43,714 nt of DNA from a bacterium (lineage in GTDB: Bacteria > Auribacterota > UBA3054). Shown here piece after piece: positions 13,070-28,319 of this stretch. The position numbers were made by a program, and so were the translations under genes. The stretch is from the NCBI GenBank assembly GCA_017554565.1, contig JAFZID010000197.1, forward strand, positions 1 through 43,714, read 5' to 3'. Below the pieces are notes generated by a model. It was not told the DNA's origin and searched no databases. It saw nothing but the letters and a program-made list of their open reading frames with translations. The first letter of the stretch is position 1, and the number at the start of each line of letters is the position of its first letter.

Positions 13070-14305
13070 TTATTTTCCTGTATAAAGTTTTTTCGCCTGG
13101 ATAAGTTTCCAAACGTTGGAAGGAATATTCTTCTTATCTATCTTACCTTCTTTTAACTTTTGACGCAAAGCCGTGGAAGAAACAGCCGTGGCGGGACCTT
13201 TTATCAGGAGGTCTCCGGCTTTTATTTTCGCTATCTCTCCCTTGCGCTGGTAAACGGCCAGCTTTGCCAGTTTCTTGATTTTAGCGGGTTCGCGCCAGGT
13301 CCCAAAACCCAGGTAATTGTCGGAGCCCAGAAGGAAGTAGAGCTCGCAGGGCGCGAAGCGTTTTTTCAGCGTTTGCAGCGTTTCCACGGTGTAGGAAACG
13401 CCGCCTCTAGTGAGTTCGCAGCGCTCCAGACGAAAGGCGGGATCCTTCTTCAGCGCCGCGTTTATGAGCTCGCAGCGGGCTTCGTTGTCGGCGTAGATCT
13501 TGTCCTTTTTGTGCGGCGCCTGATAGGCCGGCACGAAAAGCAAAAGATCGAGTCCGAGCTGTAATTTCGCCCTTCTGGCGATGGCGATGTGCGTCTTGTG
13601 GACGGGGTCGAAGGAGCCGCCGAAGACGCCGATCTTCAGTTTGCCCCTGAAGGGCTTCAGAAGTTTCGCGATGTCTCTTGTCTTCTCGGCGTAGAGCTCC
13701 GGTTTGTAGGGCGCGACGTCGGCTTTGTCCCGGAAGCCCCAGGCCACCGCCATTACGGGGATCTTAGCGTTCCTGGCGGTCTGCATGTCCACTTCGGAGT
13801 CGCCGATGTAGATCGCTTCTTCGGGTTTGGCGTCAAGCTGCTTCAGGGCTTCCCAGACGGCGTCGGGAGCGGGCTTCCTGCTCCTCCCCTCCTTGTCGCC
13901 CAATGCGACGTCCCAAAGCGAGGGGAAAAAGCGCTTGGCCAGTTTTCTGACGGCGCGCTCCGGTTTGTTGGAGACGATGGCAACTTTGAAGCCAAGGTCC
14001 CTTAGTTTTTTCAGCTCTTCTATGATCCCGGCATAGGGCCTGGTCTTCACGACGGTATGCGCCGCGTAGTAGCGGCGCATATCCGCCAGTATTTCCGGAT
14101 ACTCCGGATCCAGGAGGCCTTTCTTTAGCGAGCGCTCCACGAGTTTGCCCACGCCGTTGCCAACGTAGCGGCGAGCCTCGCCGAGCGTTATAGGAGGCCT
14201 CTTGTGTTTGCTCAAAGCGAAATTGACGGCGGTCTGGAGATCGACGAGGGTGTCTAAAAGCGTCCCGTCAAGATCGAAGACCGCGCATTTGATGGTCTTG
14301 CCCAT
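13070..14305 (-). CDS. Fusion of a HAD phosphatase (Gph-like) and nicotinate-nucleotide adenylyltransferase NadD
   Basis: 411 residues from ATG 14305, which shares one base with the upstream stop (TGATG). Residues 1-about 220 are a HAD hydrolase of the phosphoglycolate phosphatase type: DLDGT with nucleophile Asp11 and Asp13, VSNKPER, Lys in RSRKPAPD, and IGDSEVD. Residues about 222-411 are NadD: GVFGGSFDPVHKTH (226-239), PHK (264-266), RGGVSYTVETL, LGSDN (326-330) and SSTALR (376-381). NadD makes deamido-NAD from nicotinate mononucleotide and ATP. All key residues of both halves are present, and the DNA is continuous in one frame, so this looks like a true bifunctional protein. The phosphatase substrate is unknown. 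Confidence 0.9.
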   Translation of the reverse strand: MGKTIKCAVFDLDGTLLDTLVDLQTAVNFALSKHKRPPITLGEARRYVGNGVGKLVERSLKKGLLDPEYPEILADMRRYYAAHTVVKTRPYAGIIEELKKLRDLGFKVAIVSNKPERAVRKLAKRFFPSLWDVALGDKEGRSRKPAPDAVWEALKQLDAKPEEAIYIGDSEVDMQTARNAKIPVMAVAWGFRDKADVAPYKPELYAEKTRDIAKLLKPFRGKLKIGVFGGSFDPVHKTHIAIARRAKLQLGLDLLLFVPAYQAPHKKDKIYADNEARCELINAALKKDPAFRLERCELTRGGVSYTVETLQTLKKRFAPCELYFLLGSDNYLGFGTWREPAKIKKLAKLAVYQRKGEIAKIKAGDLLIKGPATAVSSTALRQKLKEGKIDKKNIPSNVWKLIQAKKLYTGK

Positions 14306-15270
14306 CAATTCCACCAGAGCTCGCCCTCCATCTTCTGCCTGATCATATTGCGCTGCAGGAAACTTATGGCGCTCTCAAGGCCTTCCTTGGGCGTCATCAG
14401 GCTGTCTTCGTGCTCGATGGAGAGGGCGTAGTCGTAGCCCTCCATCCTGAGAGCGCCGAAGATCTGCTTCCACTGCTGTTCGCTCATGCCGTGGCCGACG
14501 GTCCTGAAGAGCCAGGCGCGGTCTCTTTCCTTGTCGAAGGGCTTCGTTTCCAGAACGCCCGTGCGGTTTGCGACCTCCGGGTGCATCTCCGTGTCCTTGG
14601 CGTGGAAGAAGTGGATCGCTTTGCCGAGGTAGCGGATGACGGAAACGATGTCCATGCCCTGCCAGATGAGGTGCGAGGGGTCAAGGTTGGCGCCTATGAT
14701 GTCGCCCACCGCCGCTCTCAAACGGAGCAGGCTGTCAGGATTGTAAACGCAGAAGCCGGGATGCATTTCCAGGGCGACGTATTTGACGCCTCCCTCTTCG
14801 GCGATCTTGGCGGCCTTCTGCCAATAAGGGATCAAAACTTCGTTCCACTGGTAGTCCAGGACTTTCCGGTACTCGGTGGGCCAGGTGCAGGTCACCCAGT
14901 TGGGCTGGTCGCCCTTGCCGTCGCCGGGACAGCCGGAGAAGGTCACCAGATGATCGACGCCCAGTTGTCCGCAGAGCTCGCAGGCCGCCTCGTAGTCCTC
15001 TTCGAACTTCGCGGCGATCTCGGGGTTGGGATGTACGCAGTTGCCGTGGACGGAGAGGCAGACCAGCTTTATCTGGTGCTTCTCGAAGGTGTCCAGGAGT
15101 TCCTGCCGGGCCTTCGGATCTTTCACGAGCTTTTTCGCGTCCGCGTGCGCCGTGCCGGGATAACCGCCGACGCCCAGCTCCATGGCCTCGACGCCCAGGC
15201 CCTTCAGGTACGCGAGGGCGGCGTCCAGGCTCATGTCAGCCAGAGCGGGACTGAATACGCACAGTTGCAT
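14305..15270 (-). CDS. Sugar phosphate isomerase/epimerase (xylose-isomerase-like TIM barrel)
   Basis: 321 residues. AP endonuclease 2/xylose isomerase-like TIM barrel. Metal-site candidates: Glu in YVALEMHPGF, Asp/His in GANLDPSHLIWQG, His in FFHAKDTE and Glu in SIEHEDS. AAGGAG lies five bases before the ATG. Enzymes of this family next to Gfo/Idh/MocA and ThuA genes usually handle inositol-, uronate- or 3-keto-sugar derivatives; the substrate cannot be read from the sequence. Confidence 0.88.
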   Translation of the reverse strand: MQLCVFSPALADMSLDAALAYLKGLGVEAMELGVGGYPGTAHADAKKLVKDPKARQELLDTFEKHQIKLVCLSVHGNCVHPNPEIAAKFEEDYEAACELCGQLGVDHLVTFSGCPGDGKGDQPNWVTCTWPTEYRKVLDYQWNEVLIPYWQKAAKIAEEGGVKYVALEMHPGFCVYNPDSLLRLRAAVGDIIGANLDPSHLIWQGMDIVSVIRYLGKAIHFFHAKDTEMHPEVANRTGVLETKPFDKERDRAWLFRTVGHGMSEQQWKQIFGALRMEGYDYALSIEHEDSLMTPKEGLESAISFLQRNMIRQKMEGELWWN

Positions 15271-15279
15271 AAGGTCTCC

Positions 15280-16380
15280 TTATTTCTTCGTGGCTTTCTG
15301 TTTTTTGAAGTAATAGGGCTTGCCGGTCTTGGCGGATTCGTAGATGCCTTCCAGGATCTGCGTGACGACGTAGGCCTGTTCGGCTTTGACCACCAGTTCG
15401 CCCTTGCCGAGGACAGCCTGCGTGAAGACGCGGGCTTCCCTGTCTTCCGAAGTCTCGGAGTGGCCGTCGTAGAAAGCGACGCCGCTGGCTTTGAGGTCGG
15501 GTTTCAGGACGTAGCGGGCGTTGTTCTTGATGCCGTTGATCCTGAGTCCGTCCTTCATGTCGGCGCCGGCAAGCGTTCCGCTGAATTCCGTGCAGGCTTC
15601 GCCGGTACTGAGGGTGTTGAGGGCCCAGCTGGATTCCACGATGATGGTGGCGCCGTTCTTCATGACGACGAAACCGAAGGCGCTGTCTTCCACGGTGAAT
15701 TTCTTGGGATCCCAGTCGCCCCAGGCGTTGCCCTGGTCAGTCTGCTTGTTGAGCTTGTGGTACGTCGTGCCGACGGCGTAGGCGGGCTCGTAGTTGTTGA
15801 GCATGTAGAGCGTCAGGTCGAGGGTGTGCGTCGCAATGTCGATCAAGGGTCCGCCGCCCTGCTGCTTCTCATCCAGGAAGACGCCCCAGGTGGGGACGGC
15901 TCTGCGCCTGATGGCCTGGGCCTTGGCGTAGTAGATGTCGCCGAAGGTGCCTTTTTCGCATTCCTTCTTCAAAAAGATGGCCTGAGGAGTGTAGCGGCTC
16001 TGGTAGCCTATTGTGAGGATGCGTTTATATTTCTTGGCGGCGTCCAGCATTTTCTTCGCTTCCTTAGAATTGATGGCCATGGGCTTTTCGCACATGACGT
16101 GCTTGCCGGCTTTCATGGCGTCCACGGAAATGAAGCTGTGGGCGAGGTTCGGGGTCAGGACCAGGACCGCCTCGATCGTTTTGTCTTTCAGGAGTTCCTT
16201 GTAGTCCTTGTAAACTTTTGCGCCGGGAACGCCGTATTCCTTGGCGGCCTTTTCCGCTCTCTCCACGATGATGTCGCAGAAAGCGACCAATTCGGAATCA
16301 GGATTGTGCTTGTGGGCCGGAAGGTGTTTGCCGTTGGCGATGCCGCCGCAACCGATGACGCCGATGCGAACTTTTTTCAT
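15280..16380 (-). CDS. Gfo/Idh/MocA-family oxidoreductase (first)
   Basis: 366 residues from ATG 16380, chosen because AAGGAG lies nearby upstream and the NAD(P)-binding fold begins at once (KVRIGVIGCGGIANGKHL). The active-site Lys is in CEKPMA, as in the family. The C-terminal beta-sheet domain follows from about residue 125 (HTLDLTLYML near residue 180). There is no signal peptide. It oxidises or reduces a sugar or cyclitol hydroxyl with NAD(P). It lies in a row with ThuA, a second family member and an isomerase. Confidence 0.9.
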   Translation of the reverse strand: MKKVRIGVIGCGGIANGKHLPAHKHNPDSELVAFCDIIVERAEKAAKEYGVPGAKVYKDYKELLKDKTIEAVLVLTPNLAHSFISVDAMKAGKHVMCEKPMAINSKEAKKMLDAAKKYKRILTIGYQSRYTPQAIFLKKECEKGTFGDIYYAKAQAIRRRAVPTWGVFLDEKQQGGGPLIDIATHTLDLTLYMLNNYEPAYAVGTTYHKLNKQTDQGNAWGDWDPKKFTVEDSAFGFVVMKNGATIIVESSWALNTLSTGEACTEFSGTLAGADMKDGLRINGIKNNARYVLKPDLKASGVAFYDGHSETSEDREARVFTQAVLGKGELVVKAEQAYVVTQILEGIYESAKTGKPYYFKKQKATKK

Positions 16381-16409
16381 TTTTATCTCCTTTTTTGGGG
16401 TGTTATTTT

Positions 16410-17144
16410 TTAATTGCTTTTTTCGATGGGTTCCAGAGGCTGCACGTTGGGGCAGTCGATCTCCGTGAGCCATTTGTCAGGCTTCACGAATTCGGCGATG
16501 TTCGTCAAAAGCTTCTGGATCTTGGGATCCTGGTAAACGGGGTAGGTCTCGTGTCCGGGCTGGAAGTAAATGACTTTGCCGTAGTAGCGCTTGAAGAAAG
16601 CGATGGAGCGGAAGACTTCGCCGCCCTGGAACCAGCCGATGGCGAGCAGCCTGTCGGGCTGCGGGATGCCAAAGGGTTCGCCGTACATTTCTTCGTGAGG
16701 GATCTCGAGGTATTCGCCCTCCAAGCCTTCGAAGATCTGGTGGTTGGGCTCCACGAACCACAGTCTTTCCTTTTCGGCCACTTCCCTCCACTTCAGCGTG
16801 CAGGGGCCGCCCACCAGGGAGCGGAAGGGTTTGGAAAGATGCGCACTGTGGAGGAAAACGATGCCCATGCCTTTCCAGACGCGGCGCACGATCTTCTTGA
16901 CGAGTTCGTCGGAAACTTTGCCGTGATAGCAGTGTCCCCACCAGAAGAGCACGTCGGTGGATTTCAGGATCTCGTCCGTCAGCTGCTGGCCGTCGTCGCC
17001 TTCATTCTGCAGAACGACCGTGGTCTTGTTGCCGGCCTTTTCCAAAAAAGCCGCGATGGTCTCGCCCATGCCGATGGGGTAGGCTTCCTTGACTCGGCCT
17101 TCGCGCATCTGCTTGTAGTTTTCGCACCAGACTGTGATGTTCAT
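16410..17144 (-). CDS. ThuA-like protein
   Basis: 244 residues. ThuA family, related to class I glutamine amidotransferases but without the nucleophile Cys. Seen: VLFWWGHCYHGKV, GIVFLHSAHLSKPF and VIYFQPGHETYPVYQ. The family was named from trehalose utilisation in rhizobia, where it works with Gfo/Idh/MocA dehydrogenases on 3-keto-sugars. The pairing here with two such dehydrogenases fits. Substrate unknown. Confidence 0.85.
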   Translation of the reverse strand: MNITVWCENYKQMREGRVKEAYPIGMGETIAAFLEKAGNKTTVVLQNEGDDGQQLTDEILKSTDVLFWWGHCYHGKVSDELVKKIVRRVWKGMGIVFLHSAHLSKPFRSLVGGPCTLKWREVAEKERLWFVEPNHQIFEGLEGEYLEIPHEEMYGEPFGIPQPDRLLAIGWFQGGEVFRSIAFFKRYYGKVIYFQPGHETYPVYQDPKIQKLLTNIAEFVKPDKWLTEIDCPNVQPLEPIEKSN

Positions 17145-17167
17145 AATGTTCCCCCGAAAAGTTTGTG

Positions 17168-18220
17168 TTAAAAATCTATCTCGACCACTTTGTTTTCCGC
17201 GGCGGATTTGGCGGCCGCGGTCATGATCTTAAGAACGCGCAGGACTTCCCAGTTCTTGACATAGGGGTCCTCCTCTTTGTGCATCGCCTTGATGAAGTGC
17301 TTGTAGAAAGCGAAGGGTTCGGGCTTCACTATTTCAAGCGGCAGCGTCTCCACCGTGTCGTGCGGACGGTACGCCATCGTTTTCGTGAAACCGTTGCCGG
17401 CTTTGATGCCGGTTATCTCCCTGGGTTTTTCAGTGTAGATGGGACGGACCATCTTGCCGTTCAAGTCCCAATCCTCCACCACCGCCGTGCCGTCGTGGCC
17501 GTAAACAACCCAGCGGGGCAGCGGCGTGAAGCAGTTGGTGTCAACCACCACTTCGATGCACTTGTTGCCGCTGAAAACCATTTCAAGCTTGAAAGCGTCG
17601 TCGCAGTCGTAGCCCGCTTCGTAAGAGTACTGGCAGTAAAGGTGCAGAAGCTTTTCCTTCATCATGAACATGATCTGGTCGATCATGTGCACGCCCCAGT
17701 CCAGCATCATGCCGCCGCCTTTTATCTTCTCGCATCTCCAGCCGCCGGGAACGCCGTTGGCGCCCTGGACTCGCGATTCTATGCGGCCGATGGGGCCCAG
17801 GAGATTCTTCTCGTAAATGTTTTTCACAATGAGGTAGTCTTCGTCCCAGCGCCTGTTCTGATGCACCATCAGAAGCGTTCCGCATTCGTCGGCGGTCTCC
17901 GCCATATCCTCGAAAAGACTGGGGTTGATGGCGGCGGGCTTTTCGCAGATGACGCCTTTGCCCGCTTTGGCGCAGGCCTTGGCGTAGAAGGGATGCCAGT
18001 CGTTGGGAGTCGCGATCAAAACGGCTTCCAGCTCAGGATCGGAGAGCATTTCCTCGTAAGTCTTGTAAACGTACAGTCCGTTTTCAACCGCTCTCTTCTG
18101 GCTCTTGGGATCGATATCGTAAATGCCTTTCGCTTCGATGATGCCGCTCTTGGCCATATGCTTGACATGGTATCCGCCCATGCCGCCGTAACCGATGACG
18201 CCGATCTTTACCGTGCTCAT
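17168..18220 (-). CDS. Gfo/Idh/MocA-family oxidoreductase (second)
   Basis: 350 residues. Begins with the Rossmann motif VKIGVIGYGGMGGYHVKH. The catalytic Lys is in CEKPAA, and GGGMMLDWGVHMIDQIMFM is the family's C-domain motif. First gene of the ten-gene minus-strand run. The leader (18221-18289) is AT-rich; an AAGGAG lies 16 bases from the ATG, which is further than ideal. No convincing -35/-10 pair could be singled out, though TATAAA-like stretches occur near 18266. Confidence 0.9.
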   Translation of the reverse strand: MSTVKIGVIGYGGMGGYHVKHMAKSGIIEAKGIYDIDPKSQKRAVENGLYVYKTYEEMLSDPELEAVLIATPNDWHPFYAKACAKAGKGVICEKPAAINPSLFEDMAETADECGTLLMVHQNRRWDEDYLIVKNIYEKNLLGPIGRIESRVQGANGVPGGWRCEKIKGGGMMLDWGVHMIDQIMFMMKEKLLHLYCQYSYEAGYDCDDAFKLEMVFSGNKCIEVVVDTNCFTPLPRWVVYGHDGTAVVEDWDLNGKMVRPIYTEKPREITGIKAGNGFTKTMAYRPHDTVETLPLEIVKPEPFAFYKHFIKAMHKEEDPYVKNWEVLRVLKIMTAAAKSAAENKVVEIDF

Positions 18221-18289
18221 AGTTTTTTAGTTTTTTCTCCTTGCTTTTTTGTTTTTGATTATTGTTTATATTTTATTAAATTTTCTTTT

Positions 18290-19207
18290 CTAGCTCATGG
18301 CGCGCAGCCTCGCCACTCTTTTCGCGATGGGCGGGTGGGTGGAGAAGAGCGAATCGGCGCTGAAAAAGGATTTCTTAAAAGGCTCCGCGATATAGAGCGC
18401 TCTGGTGGCGCCGGAGGCGCCCTTCACTTCCCCGGGATCGCCGGCTATCTTTTCCAAAGCCCGGGCCAATCCTTCGGGATTCCTGGTGAGGGAGACGGCC
18501 CCGGCGTCCGCCAGATACTCCCTTTCCCGGGATATGGCCAGCTGCACGATGGCGGAAAGAATGGGGGCGAAGATCATCAGCGCCAGGCACAATACCAATA
18601 TCAGCGCCTGCCCCTGCCCGGCTTTCCTGGAGGAGGACCGCCGGCTTCCTCCAAAGAGCATGAAGCGCCAGGCGAAGCGGGCGATCATGGCCACCGCGCC
18701 CACCAGGACGCAGACCAGGGTGGAGAAAAGAATATCGTAATGCCTGATGTGGGAAAGCTCGTGGGCGATGACGCCCTGCAGTTCGTCGCGGTTCAGTTTT
18801 TGAAGAAGACCTCTGGTGACCGCCACCGCGCTGTCCTTGGGATTCCTGCCGGTGGCGAAGGCGTTGGGCGCCGCTTCCTCCATGATGTAAACCTTCGGCA
18901 TGGGGAGGCCGCCGGCGATGGTCATCTCCTCCACCACGTTGTAAAGCTGTTTCTCAACTTTGGGATCCGCCTCTCTCGCTCCGCTCAGCGCCATGACGGC
19001 CGCGCTTCCCTTGAAATATCCGAAGAGGATATATACCGCAACGAAGACCAGGGAAAGAAAAATAATGAAGCCCTGCTCCTCGGGCGGGAAGAGTGCGGAA
19101 AGCGCCAGGCAGAAAGCCGTCAGAAGGATCGCCAGAAGCGCGACGAAGAAAACGGATTTCCGCTTGTTGGCTGCGATGCAGTCCCGGATGCTTTTCCTTT
19201 CCGCCAT
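18290..19207 (-). CDS. M48-family zinc metalloprotease (HtpX-like)
   Basis: 305 residues. Two N-terminal membrane helices (about 18-40 and 46-64), then the zinc site HELSH (149-153), two further helices (about 160-185 and 195-220) and the third ligand in REREYLADAGA. HtpX-type proteases remove damaged inner-membrane proteins. AAGGAC lies before the ATG. It follows lemA with a 12-base gap; lemA-htpX pairs are common, supporting the assignment. The tail STHPPIAKRVARLRAM is typical of the family. Confidence 0.92.
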   Translation of the reverse strand: MAERKSIRDCIAANKRKSVFFVALLAILLTAFCLALSALFPPEEQGFIIFLSLVFVAVYILFGYFKGSAAVMALSGAREADPKVEKQLYNVVEEMTIAGGLPMPKVYIMEEAAPNAFATGRNPKDSAVAVTRGLLQKLNRDELQGVIAHELSHIRHYDILFSTLVCVLVGAVAMIARFAWRFMLFGGSRRSSSRKAGQGQALILVLCLALMIFAPILSAIVQLAISREREYLADAGAVSLTRNPEGLARALEKIAGDPGEVKGASGATRALYIAEPFKKSFFSADSLFSTHPPIAKRVARLRAMS

Positions 19208-19219
19208 TTGCCGTCCTTT

Positions 19220-19762
19220 TTAGAACTTCACTTTGGGAGCCGCTTCTTCGGCTTCCGAGATCTGGAAGTATTCGTAAGGCTTGAAAGAAAAGATCTTCGC
19301 GATGATGACGCTGGGAAAACTTTCGCAGCGGGTGTTGAAGGAAAGAATGCTGTCGTTGTAATGCTGCCTGGCGAAAGCCACCTTGTTTTCAGTGGACGTC
19401 AGCTCTTCCTGCAGGGAGAGCATGTTGGCGTTGGCTTTCAGTTCCGGGTATCTCTCCACCACCGCCAGAAGTCCGTGCAGCGAGCTTGTCAGCTTGTTTT
19501 CCGCGGCCACGGAATCGCGGACATCCTTGGCGTTCAGGGCCTGGTTGCGGGCTTCTATCACTTTTTCCAGCGTTTCCTTTTCGTACTGCATGTAGCCTTT
19601 GACGCACTCCACCAGATTGGGGATCAGTTCATGGCGTCTTTTAAGCTGCACCGAGATCTGGCCCCAGGCGTTTTTTATCTCGTTTGAACCGCGGATAAAA
19701 CCGTTGTAAGTAATGACGATCCACGCAGCGACGATCGCCAGCACGACAATGCCGATAAACAT
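19220..19762 (-). CDS. LemA family protein
   Basis: 180 residues. An N-terminal membrane helix (about 2-20), then the four-helix LemA domain: YNGFIRGSNEIKNAWGQI and LIPNLVECVKGYM are hallmark stretches, and the end has FSFKPYEYFQISEAE. The molecular role is unclear. AAGGAC sits five bases before the ATG. It forms an operon with the M48 protease. Confidence 0.93.
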   Translation of the reverse strand: MFIGIVVLAIVAAWIVITYNGFIRGSNEIKNAWGQISVQLKRRHELIPNLVECVKGYMQYEKETLEKVIEARNQALNAKDVRDSVAAENKLTSSLHGLLAVVERYPELKANANMLSLQEELTSTENKVAFARQHYNDSILSFNTRCESFPSVIIAKIFSFKPYEYFQISEAEEAAPKVKF

Positions 19763-25948: not shown

Positions 25949-27100
25949 ATGCACTACCAAATAGCGCCTCACGGCAATGAATTGATAAACCGCGTCCTCA
26001 CCGGGGCGCAGAGAGACTTTTGGCAGGAAAAGGCGGAATCTTTGCCCAGCATTACGTTGGACAAAAGGAAAGTTTACGACGTCATGATGATCGCGGACGG
26101 CGCCTACAGCCCCCTGGAGGGCTTCATGGGCTCCGAGGACTACACCAGCGTCCTCAACAAGATGCGCCTGGCCTCCGGCCTGCCCTGGCCAATCCCCATC
26201 GTATTGGGCGTCCATCCCGACAGAGCGGACGAATTCGACGTTTACGGTCACATAGCCCTCAAGGACAAGACCGGCCTGACGCTGGCCATTTTGCATCTTA
26301 CGGAAAAATACAAAGTCAACAAGGATCTTGAGCTGGCTAAGATCTACCGCACCACCAACCCGGACCACCCCAGCGTCAAATATCTCCTGGAGGAAAGGGG
26401 CGACGTTTTGCTGGCCGGCCCCATCGACGTCATCAACCGTCCGGCGGACGACTTCTTCGACACCAACCGCATGACGCCGGCCCAGACCAGGCGCATTTTC
26501 AAGGAACACGGCTGGAGCAGGATCGTGGGTTTCCAGACACACAATCCCATTTTGAGAAGCCACGAATACATGATCAAGACCGCCCTGGAGCTTTGCGACG
26601 GTCTGCTCCTGCATCCCCTGCGCTCCACCCCGCACGCCAACGCCGTGCCCACGGAGCTCAGGATGAAGTGCTACGAGACATTCATAGAAAATTATCTTCC
26701 CGAGGAGCGGGTGCAGCTGGCGGTCTTCCCCATGACCCAGCGCTTCGCCGGCCCCAGGGAGACGGTCCTTCACGCCATCGTGCACAAGAATTACGGCTGC
26801 TCGCATTTCATCGTGGGCTACGACCACGCCGGCTGGAAGGATTACTACAACGCCATCGACACCACCAGGATCTTCAGGAATTTCGGGCCTACGGAGCTTG
26901 GCATCCAGCCCATGTTCTTCGACAGAGTCGTCTATTGCAAGAAGTGCCGCGCCATGGTCACCGCCAAGACCTGCCCCCACAGCAGCGGCGACTACGTCAG
27001 CCTCACCTGCACGGAAGTCAGGGAAATGCGCCAGAAGGGCATGCCCATGCCGGAGGAATTCATTCGTCCCGAGATCGCGGAACTGTTGATGATGAAGTAA
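25949..27100 (+). CDS. ATP sulfurylase family protein with altered active-site motifs
   Basis: 383 residues, in the family of single-chain (dissimilatory-type) sulfate adenylyltransferases that make APS from ATP and sulfate. The fold-specific features are intact: PLEGFM, FGPTELGIQPMFFDRVVYC and a zinc site Cys330, Cys333, Cys342, His344. But the signature QTRNPxHRxH reads QTHNPILRSH (196-205), so Arg is His198 and the first His is Leu202; the usual RKN before YGC reads HKN (His279); and GRDHAG reads GYDHAG (Tyr291). The two arginines known to hold sulfate in other enzymes correspond to His198 and Tyr291. The codons were checked in the DNA. The protein may use another substrate, have lost activity, or be a divergent form. 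Start follows GAGGAA. Confidence 0.85.
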   Translation: MHYQIAPHGNELINRVLTGAQRDFWQEKAESLPSITLDKRKVYDVMMIADGAYSPLEGFMGSEDYTSVLNKMRLASGLPWPIPIVLGVHPDRADEFDVYGHIALKDKTGLTLAILHLTEKYKVNKDLELAKIYRTTNPDHPSVKYLLEERGDVLLAGPIDVINRPADDFFDTNRMTPAQTRRIFKEHGWSRIVGFQTHNPILRSHEYMIKTALELCDGLLLHPLRSTPHANAVPTELRMKCYETFIENYLPEERVQLAVFPMTQRFAGPRETVLHAIVHKNYGCSHFIVGYDHAGWKDYYNAIDTTRIFRNFGPTELGIQPMFFDRVVYCKKCRAMVTAKTCPHSSGDYVSLTCTEVREMRQKGMPMPEEFIRPEIAELLMMK

Positions 27101-27101
27101 A

Positions 27102-28319
27102 ATGCCGAAGGTCTTTACTCACGCGACGGGCTGCAAGATAAGCTACTGCGACACGAAGGAAGCGGAGGAGCTTTTTTGCGCGGCGGGCTGGGAGATCGCC
27201 AAACAGCCGGAGGAAGCGGATCTTTTCCTTCTGACGGCCTGCACGGTGACCCAGAAAGCGGACGCCGACTTGAGAAAGGCCGCAAGGCAGCTGAAAAACA
27301 AAAACCCCCGGGCGGAGCTTTGGATCTACGGCTGCTGGGCCAGGGTGGCGGAGAAACACGAGCCCCTGGACCGGGCGGACGCGGTGGTAAAAAGCAAGGA
27401 AGAGCTGGAAGCTCTCCTGGCGGAAAGGAAAGGCGAAGCGCAAGCCAAGCCGGAATTGGAAAGGAACAGGATCTTTGTAAAAGTTCAGGACGGCTGCGAC
27501 CGCTACTGCGCCTACTGCATCGTGCCCTTCGCCCGAGGCAACCCCAGGAGCATGCCCTATGAGGAAATAAAGGGCCGCGTCCTGGAGGCGGAAAGCCTCG
27601 GCCTCAAGGAATGCGTGCTCTCCGGGATCCATCTGGCTTCCTGGCGGGACGGCGAAAAAGACATCGCCGATCTCTGCGCCGCGCTTCTTAAGGACACCTC
27701 CATCCCGCGCCTGCGGATAAGCTCCCTGGACGTGACGGGAGCCGGAGAGAAATTAAGGAAGCTGATGCGGGAGGAGAAAAGGCTCATGCCGCACCTGCAC
27801 ATTCCCCTGCAGTCCGGCAGCGACCGCGTCCTCAGGCTCATGAACCGCCCGCTCGAAAGAGCGCAGCTCCTGGACGCCATGCAAGCTTTCCTGACGGAAG
27901 TTCCCTCTATGATGCTCTCCACGGACATCATCGTGGGCTTCCCGGGAGAAACGGAAGAGGACTTTCAGGAGACCTTGTCCTTCGTAAAGGAGATCCCCTT
28001 CGGCAAGATCCACTACTTCCCCTATTCCCCGCGGCCTGGCACGGCGGCGGCGAAAAGAGTGAAAGACTTCGTTCCGGAAAAAGTGAAGAAGGAGAGGGAA
28101 GAGCGGCTGCGCCAAGCGGCGGCGGAAGCCGCCAGGATCTGCCGGGAGCCTTTTCAGGGTCAGAGCTTCCAGGTCCTGACGGAGACAAAAGGGCCTTCCG
28201 GCTGGCTGGGCTTCACAGAAAATTACTTAAGGGTCTGCTCAAAGAAGGCTGATCTCAAGGCCAACGAGATAGCGACCCTCACCATAGACGGTAAAGAGAC
28301 AGAATTTATTCCTCAATAA
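27102..28319 (+). CDS. mtaB: tRNA t6A37 methylthiotransferase MtaB
   Basis: 405 residues. Converts t6A37 to ms2t6A37 in tRNAs reading ANN codons. The UPF0004 domain carries the first iron-sulfur cluster (Cys11, Cys47, Cys78), the radical SAM domain the CDRYCAYC motif (Cys132, Cys136, Cys139), and a TRAM-like C-terminal part follows. HIPLQSGSDRVLRLMNR and TDIIVGFPGETEEDF are family motifs. The N-terminal ATGCKISYCDTKEAE fits MtaB better than MiaB or RimO. It starts one base after the sulfurylase stop. Confidence 0.92.
   Translation: MPKVFTHATGCKISYCDTKEAEELFCAAGWEIAKQPEEADLFLLTACTVTQKADADLRKAARQLKNKNPRAELWIYGCWARVAEKHEPLDRADAVVKSKEELEALLAERKGEAQAKPELERNRIFVKVQDGCDRYCAYCIVPFARGNPRSMPYEEIKGRVLEAESLGLKECVLSGIHLASWRDGEKDIADLCAALLKDTSIPRLRISSLDVTGAGEKLRKLMREEKRLMPHLHIPLQSGSDRVLRLMNRPLERAQLLDAMQAFLTEVPSMMLSTDIIVGFPGETEEDFQETLSFVKEIPFGKIHYFPYSPRPGTAAAKRVKDFVPEKVKKEREERLRQAAAEAARICREPFQGQSFQVLTETKGPSGWLGFTENYLRVCSKKADLKANEIATLTIDGKETEFIPQ

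What the first reader, a model, noticed from the sequence alone, without database searches (positions are those of the whole stretch)
25949..27100. ATP sulfurylase with four substituted active-site positions
The family signature QTRNPxHRxH is QTHNPILRSH, RKNYGC is HKNYGC and GRDHAG is GYDHAG. Two of the lost arginines are those that bind sulfate in characterised enzymes. The zinc site and fold motifs are intact and the gene is full length, so this is not a decayed pseudogene. The enzyme may handle a different oxyanion or nucleotide, or have a new role. It lies after nadB with no APS reductase or kinase nearby.
Basis: partly seen in the sequence, partly recalled or inferred. Interest (0 to 1): 0.7.

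Follow-up and report, generated by a model that had tools for sequence, protein, structure and literature searches.

The report
ATP sulfurylase relative with altered active site
A gut bacterium carries a protein with the fold of a sulfate-activating enzyme that lacks most of the residues used to bind sulfate and do the chemistry, yet evolution protects it strongly, so it probably does some other job while a different enzyme activates sulfate in the same cell.

Summary
The 383-aa ORF is a full-length Sat-fold protein (model pLDDT 90; top PDB match is the M. thermolithotrophicus ATP sulfurylase). Its motifs are QTHNPILRSH / HKNYGC / GYDHAG, and the zinc site is intact.

The set is fixed in all seven genus genomes that hold the gene. 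dN/dS is 0.025-0.09, as low as nadB. In other genera of the order the same gene, in the same nadB-sat-mtaB place, carries different catalytic losses. Only one genome keeps nearly canonical residues.

The genome has no second Sat, but it has a full CysD/CysN-C sulfurylase plus a separate APS kinase, and no APS or PAPS reductase was found. Sulfate activation is therefore covered elsewhere.

Best reading: a replaced ATP sulfurylase kept as a pseudoenzyme (about 0.5). A new acceptor substrate or residual sulfurylase activity are rivals. Decay is unlikely. Inactive Sat-like domains are already known (T. denitrificans 3CR8, E. histolytica APS kinase), but fused to APS kinase rather than free-standing. 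No function was shown here.

The parts
25949..27100 (+). Sat-like protein, 383 aa, with altered active site
26534..26563 (+). QTHNPILRSH (residues 196-205): canonical QTRNPxHRxH with R198 to H and H202 to L; Q196, T197, N199, H205 kept
26624..26644 (+). Place of the GxxKxxD mobile loop (residues 226-232), here S..H..A; S or T at 226 in the genus, H229 and A232 fixed
   Evidence: loop role from PMC3779200
26783..26800 (+). HKNYGC (residues 279-284), R279 to H
26816..26833 (+). GYDHAG (residues 290-295), R291 to Y; G, D, H, A kept
26936..26980 (+). Zinc site C330 C333 C342 H344, intact
27005..27022 (+). TCTEVR (residues 353-358) in place of SGTxxR; the PPi/transition-state arginine R358 is kept
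   Evidence: residue role from PMC3779200
24361..25923 (+). nadB (L-aspartate oxidase), 25 bp upstream; directly upstream of the Sat-like gene in every order genome where both lie on one contig
27102..28319 (+). mtaB-like tRNA methylthiotransferase, starts right after the Sat-like stop codon
13082..13627 (-). nadD core match; shows that NaMN adenylyltransferase is encoded elsewhere

Best explanation
The gene descends from an ordinary homo-oligomeric ATP sulfurylase (Sat) in an ancestral nadB-sat-mtaB operon. In this order sulfate activation is supplied by CysD/CysN-C plus CysC. The Sat active site then lost its sulfate and pyrophosphate residues in different ways in different genera, while the fold stayed under strong purifying selection. 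The present protein is most likely a pseudo-sulfurylase: it no longer makes APS at a useful rate and is kept for a non-catalytic role. That role may be as a nucleotide-binding regulator, or as a scaffold for another protein such as the free APS kinase or NadB. Shown: fold, substitutions, fixation, purifying selection, presence of CysDNC, absence of detectable reductases. Inferred: loss of activity, the order of events, and the role.
For: Four of four reported positions, plus three loop residues, are changed from residues kept in essentially all reference Sats. The counterpart of L202 is essential in human PAPSS1, and the counterpart of H198 binds sulfate in structures (PMC11697783, PMC3779200). 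dN/dS is 0.025-0.09 within the genus and 0.056-0.074 in genus g2, as low as nadB and below mtaB, fmt and rsmB. Protein identity across the order (55-57%) is higher than for DnaA and DnaN (43-49%). Other genera lost different residues: g2 has QTKRP and F/Y in place of R365; G013 has HTHNP and GRNHAD. CysD (479 bits, cut-off 413), CysN-C (875 bits, cut-off 715) and CysC (273 bits, cut-off 139) are in the genome. No CysH in any of the 8 genus genomes and no AprA in the order. Reciprocal pattern: G012, whose Sat is nearest to canonical, has a CysD and CysN below TIGR cut-offs and a kinase domain without a readable P-loop. Precedent: inactive Sat-like domains in T. denitrificans and E. histolytica APS kinases.
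Against: No activity data. N199, H205, R358 and the DHAG residues are kept in this genus, so an adenylate site may persist and some catalysis cannot be excluded. The new residues at the pocket hardly vary (1 of 19 active-site positions variable against 41 of 383 overall; P = 0.08 for pocket neighbourhoods). That would also fit a new ligand. Enrichment of changes at active-site positions, among conserved positions, is significant for g2 and G013 but not for this genus (P = 0.11). No partner protein was identified.
Confidence: 0.5

Rival explanations
1. A true adenylyltransferase that acts on a different acceptor. The pocket with H198, L202, H279 and Y291 would take a less acidic or larger substrate than sulfate.
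For: The residue set is fixed through about 0.9 synonymous changes per site. Groups that hold the AMP part (T197, N199, G290, H293) and R358 are kept. The Foldseek tail includes CoaD and NadD, adenylyltransferases with organic acceptors.
Against: The first HxxH histidine, needed in the one Sat where it was mutated, is Leu. Other genera show different residue sets. The obvious acceptor suggested by nadB, NaMN, is served by a normal NadD.
Confidence: 0.2
2. Still an ATP sulfurylase, with rearranged or weaker catalysis, or acting in reverse to make ATP from APS and PPi.
For: Scores above curated sulfate adenylyltransferase cut-offs. R358, H205, N199 and DHAG are kept. Q196 and the A294 main chain could still contact sulfate.
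Against: Loss of R201, H205 and GxxKxxD equivalents together. In the A. [quoted passage not shown] CysDNC makes it redundant, and no APS-consuming reductase was found.
Confidence: 0.22
3. A gene in decay after replacement by CysDNC, not yet lost.
For: Lineage-specific active-site losses, and presence of a replacement enzyme.
Against: dN/dS at or below about 0.09 in two genera. No frameshift or stop in the full copies of the order. The split copy in G014 is a run of N. The copy missing from G004 goes with missing dnaA, nadD and nadB, so it is an assembly gap.
Confidence: 0.05

Closest known systems
Homo-oligomeric ATP sulfurylase (Sat), zinc-containing kind, e.g. M. thermolithotrophicus 8A8D/8A8G and T. 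thermophilus 1V47
   Same: Whole fold (TM 0.92-0.93 to 8A8D/8A8G), domain order, zinc site, AGPRE, DHAG, R358
   Different: R198H, H202L, R279H, R291Y, loop GxxKxxD lost, SGT to TCT; a second sulfurylase is present in the genome
Sat-like domain of T. denitrificans APS kinase (3CR8; Gay et al. 2009) and of E. histolytica APS kinase
   Same: Sat fold without ATP sulfurylase activity in those proteins; predicted to stabilise the hexamer in T. denitrificans (PMC13213808)
   Different: Those are fused to APS kinase. This protein is free-standing, keeps the zinc site and scores much closer to canonical Sats. The 3CR8 residues were not compared one by one here
Divergent Sat-like protein of Sulfurovum mangrovi (WP_318532963.1)
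   Same: Annotated sulfate adenylyltransferase with zinc motif kept and active-site residues lost (AANPLNRAHE, GSNHGG)
   Different: Only 27% identical and with a different set of replacements; no sign of common origin of the changes
CysD/CysN ATP sulfurylase
   Same: Same reaction as canonical Sat; encoded in this genome
   Different: Unrelated fold (PP-loop CysD with GTPase CysN)

Membership tests
ATP sulfurylase (Sat) family, by homology | Score above curated family cut-offs over full length | tested here: met
   TIGR00339 363 vs 323; PRK04149 438 vs 387; PF01747 260 vs 24
ATP sulfurylase (Sat) family, by homology | Sat fold | tested here: met
   AlphaFold2 model pLDDT 90, pTM 0.89; TM 0.92 to 8A8D
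Catalytic ATP sulfurylase | QXRN sulfate/phosphate loop with Arg | tested here: not met
   R to H198
Catalytic ATP sulfurylase | HXXH with both histidines | tested here: not met
   First H is L202, second kept
Catalytic ATP sulfurylase | GRD loop arginine | tested here: not met
   Y291
Catalytic ATP sulfurylase | GxxKxxD mobile loop | tested here: not met
   S/T..H..A
Catalytic ATP sulfurylase | SGTxxR with Arg365 equivalent | tested here: inconclusive
   TCTxxR, arginine kept
Catalytic ATP sulfurylase | APS formation from ATP and sulfate | not testable with these tools
   Needs purified protein
Pseudoenzyme of the Sat family | Lost catalytic residues with purifying selection on the protein | tested here: met
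Pseudoenzyme of the Sat family | No catalytic activity | not testable with these tools
   Needs assay
Pseudo-Sat domain of APS kinases (3CR8 kind) | Fusion to an APS kinase domain | tested here: not met
   383-aa protein ends after domain III; CysC is on another contig
NaMN adenylyltransferase replacement suggested by nadB | Absence of an ordinary NadD | tested here: not met
   NadD above cut-off in window 13082-13627

The most novel reading that the evidence does not exclude
The protein is an active nucleotidyltransferase of the Sat fold with a new acceptor, fixed in a genus of ruminant-gut bacteria and possibly tied to NadB, which would be a first non-oxyanion substrate for this family.
Probability: 0.15. 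Interest if true: 0.7.

Novelty: new variant of a known kind. Interest (0 to 1): 0.45.

Why it matters
The A. vinosum structure paper states that the Sat substrate site is virtually identical in all metabolic settings. Here is a clade in which that site changed in several different ways while the protein stayed under selection, in genomes that carry the other, unrelated sulfurylase. It makes the question of what Sat does besides making APS directly testable. It also warns that annotation pipelines call such genes sulfate adenylyltransferase: this one passes NCBI's own cut-offs. Pathway predictions for rumen sulfur use would be wrong if they rest on it.

Tried and rejected
Replacement of NadD, suggested by the nadB neighbour: rejected, NadD is in the window. 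Loss of the gene in G004 as a sign of dispensability: rejected, since dnaA, nadD and nadB are missing too. Frameshift in G014: it is a run of N. Sat-specific acceleration in the genus: the stem is long (0.52), but DnaA and DnaN show the same, so it is genome-wide. Viral relatives: none confirmed. Papers on free-standing inactive ATP sulfurylases: none found with the terms used. The 3CR8 paper itself is not held. The one genome-contig scan was made with a single sequence and reaches close relatives only, so the wider spread of this residue set outside the phylum is not known. Fisher test for excess change at active-site positions is not significant for this genus alone.

Full report
Observation. 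The ORF at 25949-27100 (+) encodes 383 aa and is a complete Sat: PUA-like domain at residues 5-164 and ATP-sulfurylase domain at 173-381, above the NCBIfam cut-offs for sulfate adenylyltransferase. The phmmer alignments to solved enzymes place H198, L202, H279 and Y291 at positions that are R, H, R and R in the Sats used for comparison. The zinc ligands are kept. The AlphaFold2 model has pLDDT 90 and matches 8A8D at TM 0.92. Two further changes were not noted: the GxxKxxD mobile loop is S/T..H..A, and SGTxxR is TCTxxR.

What the positions do. In A. vinosum Sat (PMC3779200) Arg201 binds the sulfate and Asp237 of the GxxKxxD loop; Asn202, His205, His208 and Arg365 form the PPi and transition-state set; Ala299-NH binds sulfate. 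In human PAPSS1 (PMC11697783) single mutation of H425 abolishes activity, and R421 and R522 hold sulfate in docking. Our protein lacks the equivalents of R201, H205, R296, G231, K234 and D237. It keeps those of Q199, T200, N202, H208, D297, H298, A299 and R365. The lost half is the sulfate and PPi side; the kept half is mostly the AMP side. That last sentence is inference from the residue list.

Is it fixed? Seven of eight genomes of the genus have the gene, with identical residues at the four positions. The eighth, G004, also lacks dnaA, nadB and nadD, which lie on the same stretch in the others, so the absence is an assembly gap. dN/dS is 0.025-0.09 within the genus, similar to nadB (0.022-0.056) and lower than mtaB, fmt and rsmB in nearly all pairs. 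In genus g2 it is 0.056-0.074. The protein is under strong constraint.

The order. Fifteen genomes in five genera were searched. The Sat-like gene sits directly after nadB, and before mtaB where the contig allows. The copies form one group on the tree, though not a starred one (89/96), nearest to Bacillus and cyanobacterial Sats by identity. Active sites differ by genus. G012: QTRNPLH, RKN, GRD, SGSxxR, with the mobile loop altered. G013: HTHNPIH, RKN, GRN. G009-G011: QTKRPI[HY], HKN, GR[DN], and R365 replaced by F or Y. This genus: QTHNPIL, HKN, GYD. Different losses in different lineages fit loss of one shared constraint (catalysis) better than one shared new reaction. Among positions conserved in reference Sats, active-site positions changed more than others in G010 (P = 0.0003), G009 (P = 0.014) and G013 (P = 0.02), but not significantly in this genus (P = 0.11) or G012 (P = 0.10).

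Genome context. The own genome has one PF01747 protein only. It also has CysD (479 bits), CysN fused to APS kinase (875 bits) and a separate CysC (273 bits). CysD-type matches are found in 14 of 15 order genomes. G011, 74% complete, shows only a weak PF01507 hit and a CysC-type domain at a contig start. No CysH was found in the eight genus genomes; G009 and G010 have one with a NirA-like sulfite reductase beside it, and G012 has a CysH-sized PF01507 match near a NirA-like gene. No AprA in the order. Sulfotransferase-family proteins are present in 13 of 15 genomes, so PAPS for sulfation is a plausible use of CysDNC. In G012, whose Sat is closest to canonical, CysD and CysN fall below the TIGR cut-offs and the fused kinase lacks a readable P-loop. 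This reciprocal pattern, from one genome, fits one working sulfurylase per lineage.

Interpretation. The most likely account is replacement of Sat by CysDNC, followed by loss of Sat catalysis and retention of the protein for something else. Two known cases show that Sat folds can be kept without activity: the T. denitrificans APS kinase 3CR8 (Gay et al. 2009, cited in PMC13213808 and PMC6715247) and the E. histolytica APS kinase. In T. denitrificans the domain is predicted to stabilise the hexamer. A free-standing counterpart acting on CysC or another partner is a testable idea, but there is no direct evidence for it here. A new acceptor substrate and residual sulfurylase activity remain possible.

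Limits. No activity, structure or interaction was measured. The genomes are metagenome assemblies, 64-93% complete for the order, so single absences are weak, while the CysH absence in eight genomes is firmer. The wider distribution of this residue set beyond the phylum could not be surveyed.

Noticed in passing
L067 8424-10259 (G012): CysN-APS kinase fusion whose kinase part reads LLLITGCKDAGKKPLARR where a P-loop is expected; CysN part scores below TIGR02034 cut-off. A second possible pseudoenzyme of sulfate activation.
   Followed up: partly
L093 286-1323 (Sulfurovum mangrovi, WP_318532963.1): Annotated sulfate adenylyltransferase with AANPLNRAHE and GSNHGG in place of QTRNPxHRxH and GRDHAG, zinc motif kept: another likely non-sulfurylase under this name.
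   Followed up: partly
L091 (Sinorhizobium chiapasense plasmid pA): An unannotated open frame joins a pyruvate-kinase-like N-terminal part to a Sat-like part (HSRNLVHRGHE, GRDHSG).
   Followed up: no
L035 and L036 (G003 contigs C4 and C6): The dnaA to rsmB region occurs on two contigs of one genome bin with the same identities to the window; probably assembly redundancy, not a duplication.
   Followed up: no
L043, L044, L046 (genus g2): Sat-like copies with QTKRP (Asn to Arg at the phosphate-binding position) and Phe or Tyr in place of the SGTxxR arginine, also under purifying selection.
   Followed up: partly
window 14410-19687: Two large proteins (667 and 840 aa) without Pfam matches; the homologue of the 840-aa one appears interrupted or divergent in G003 and G005.
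   Followed up: no
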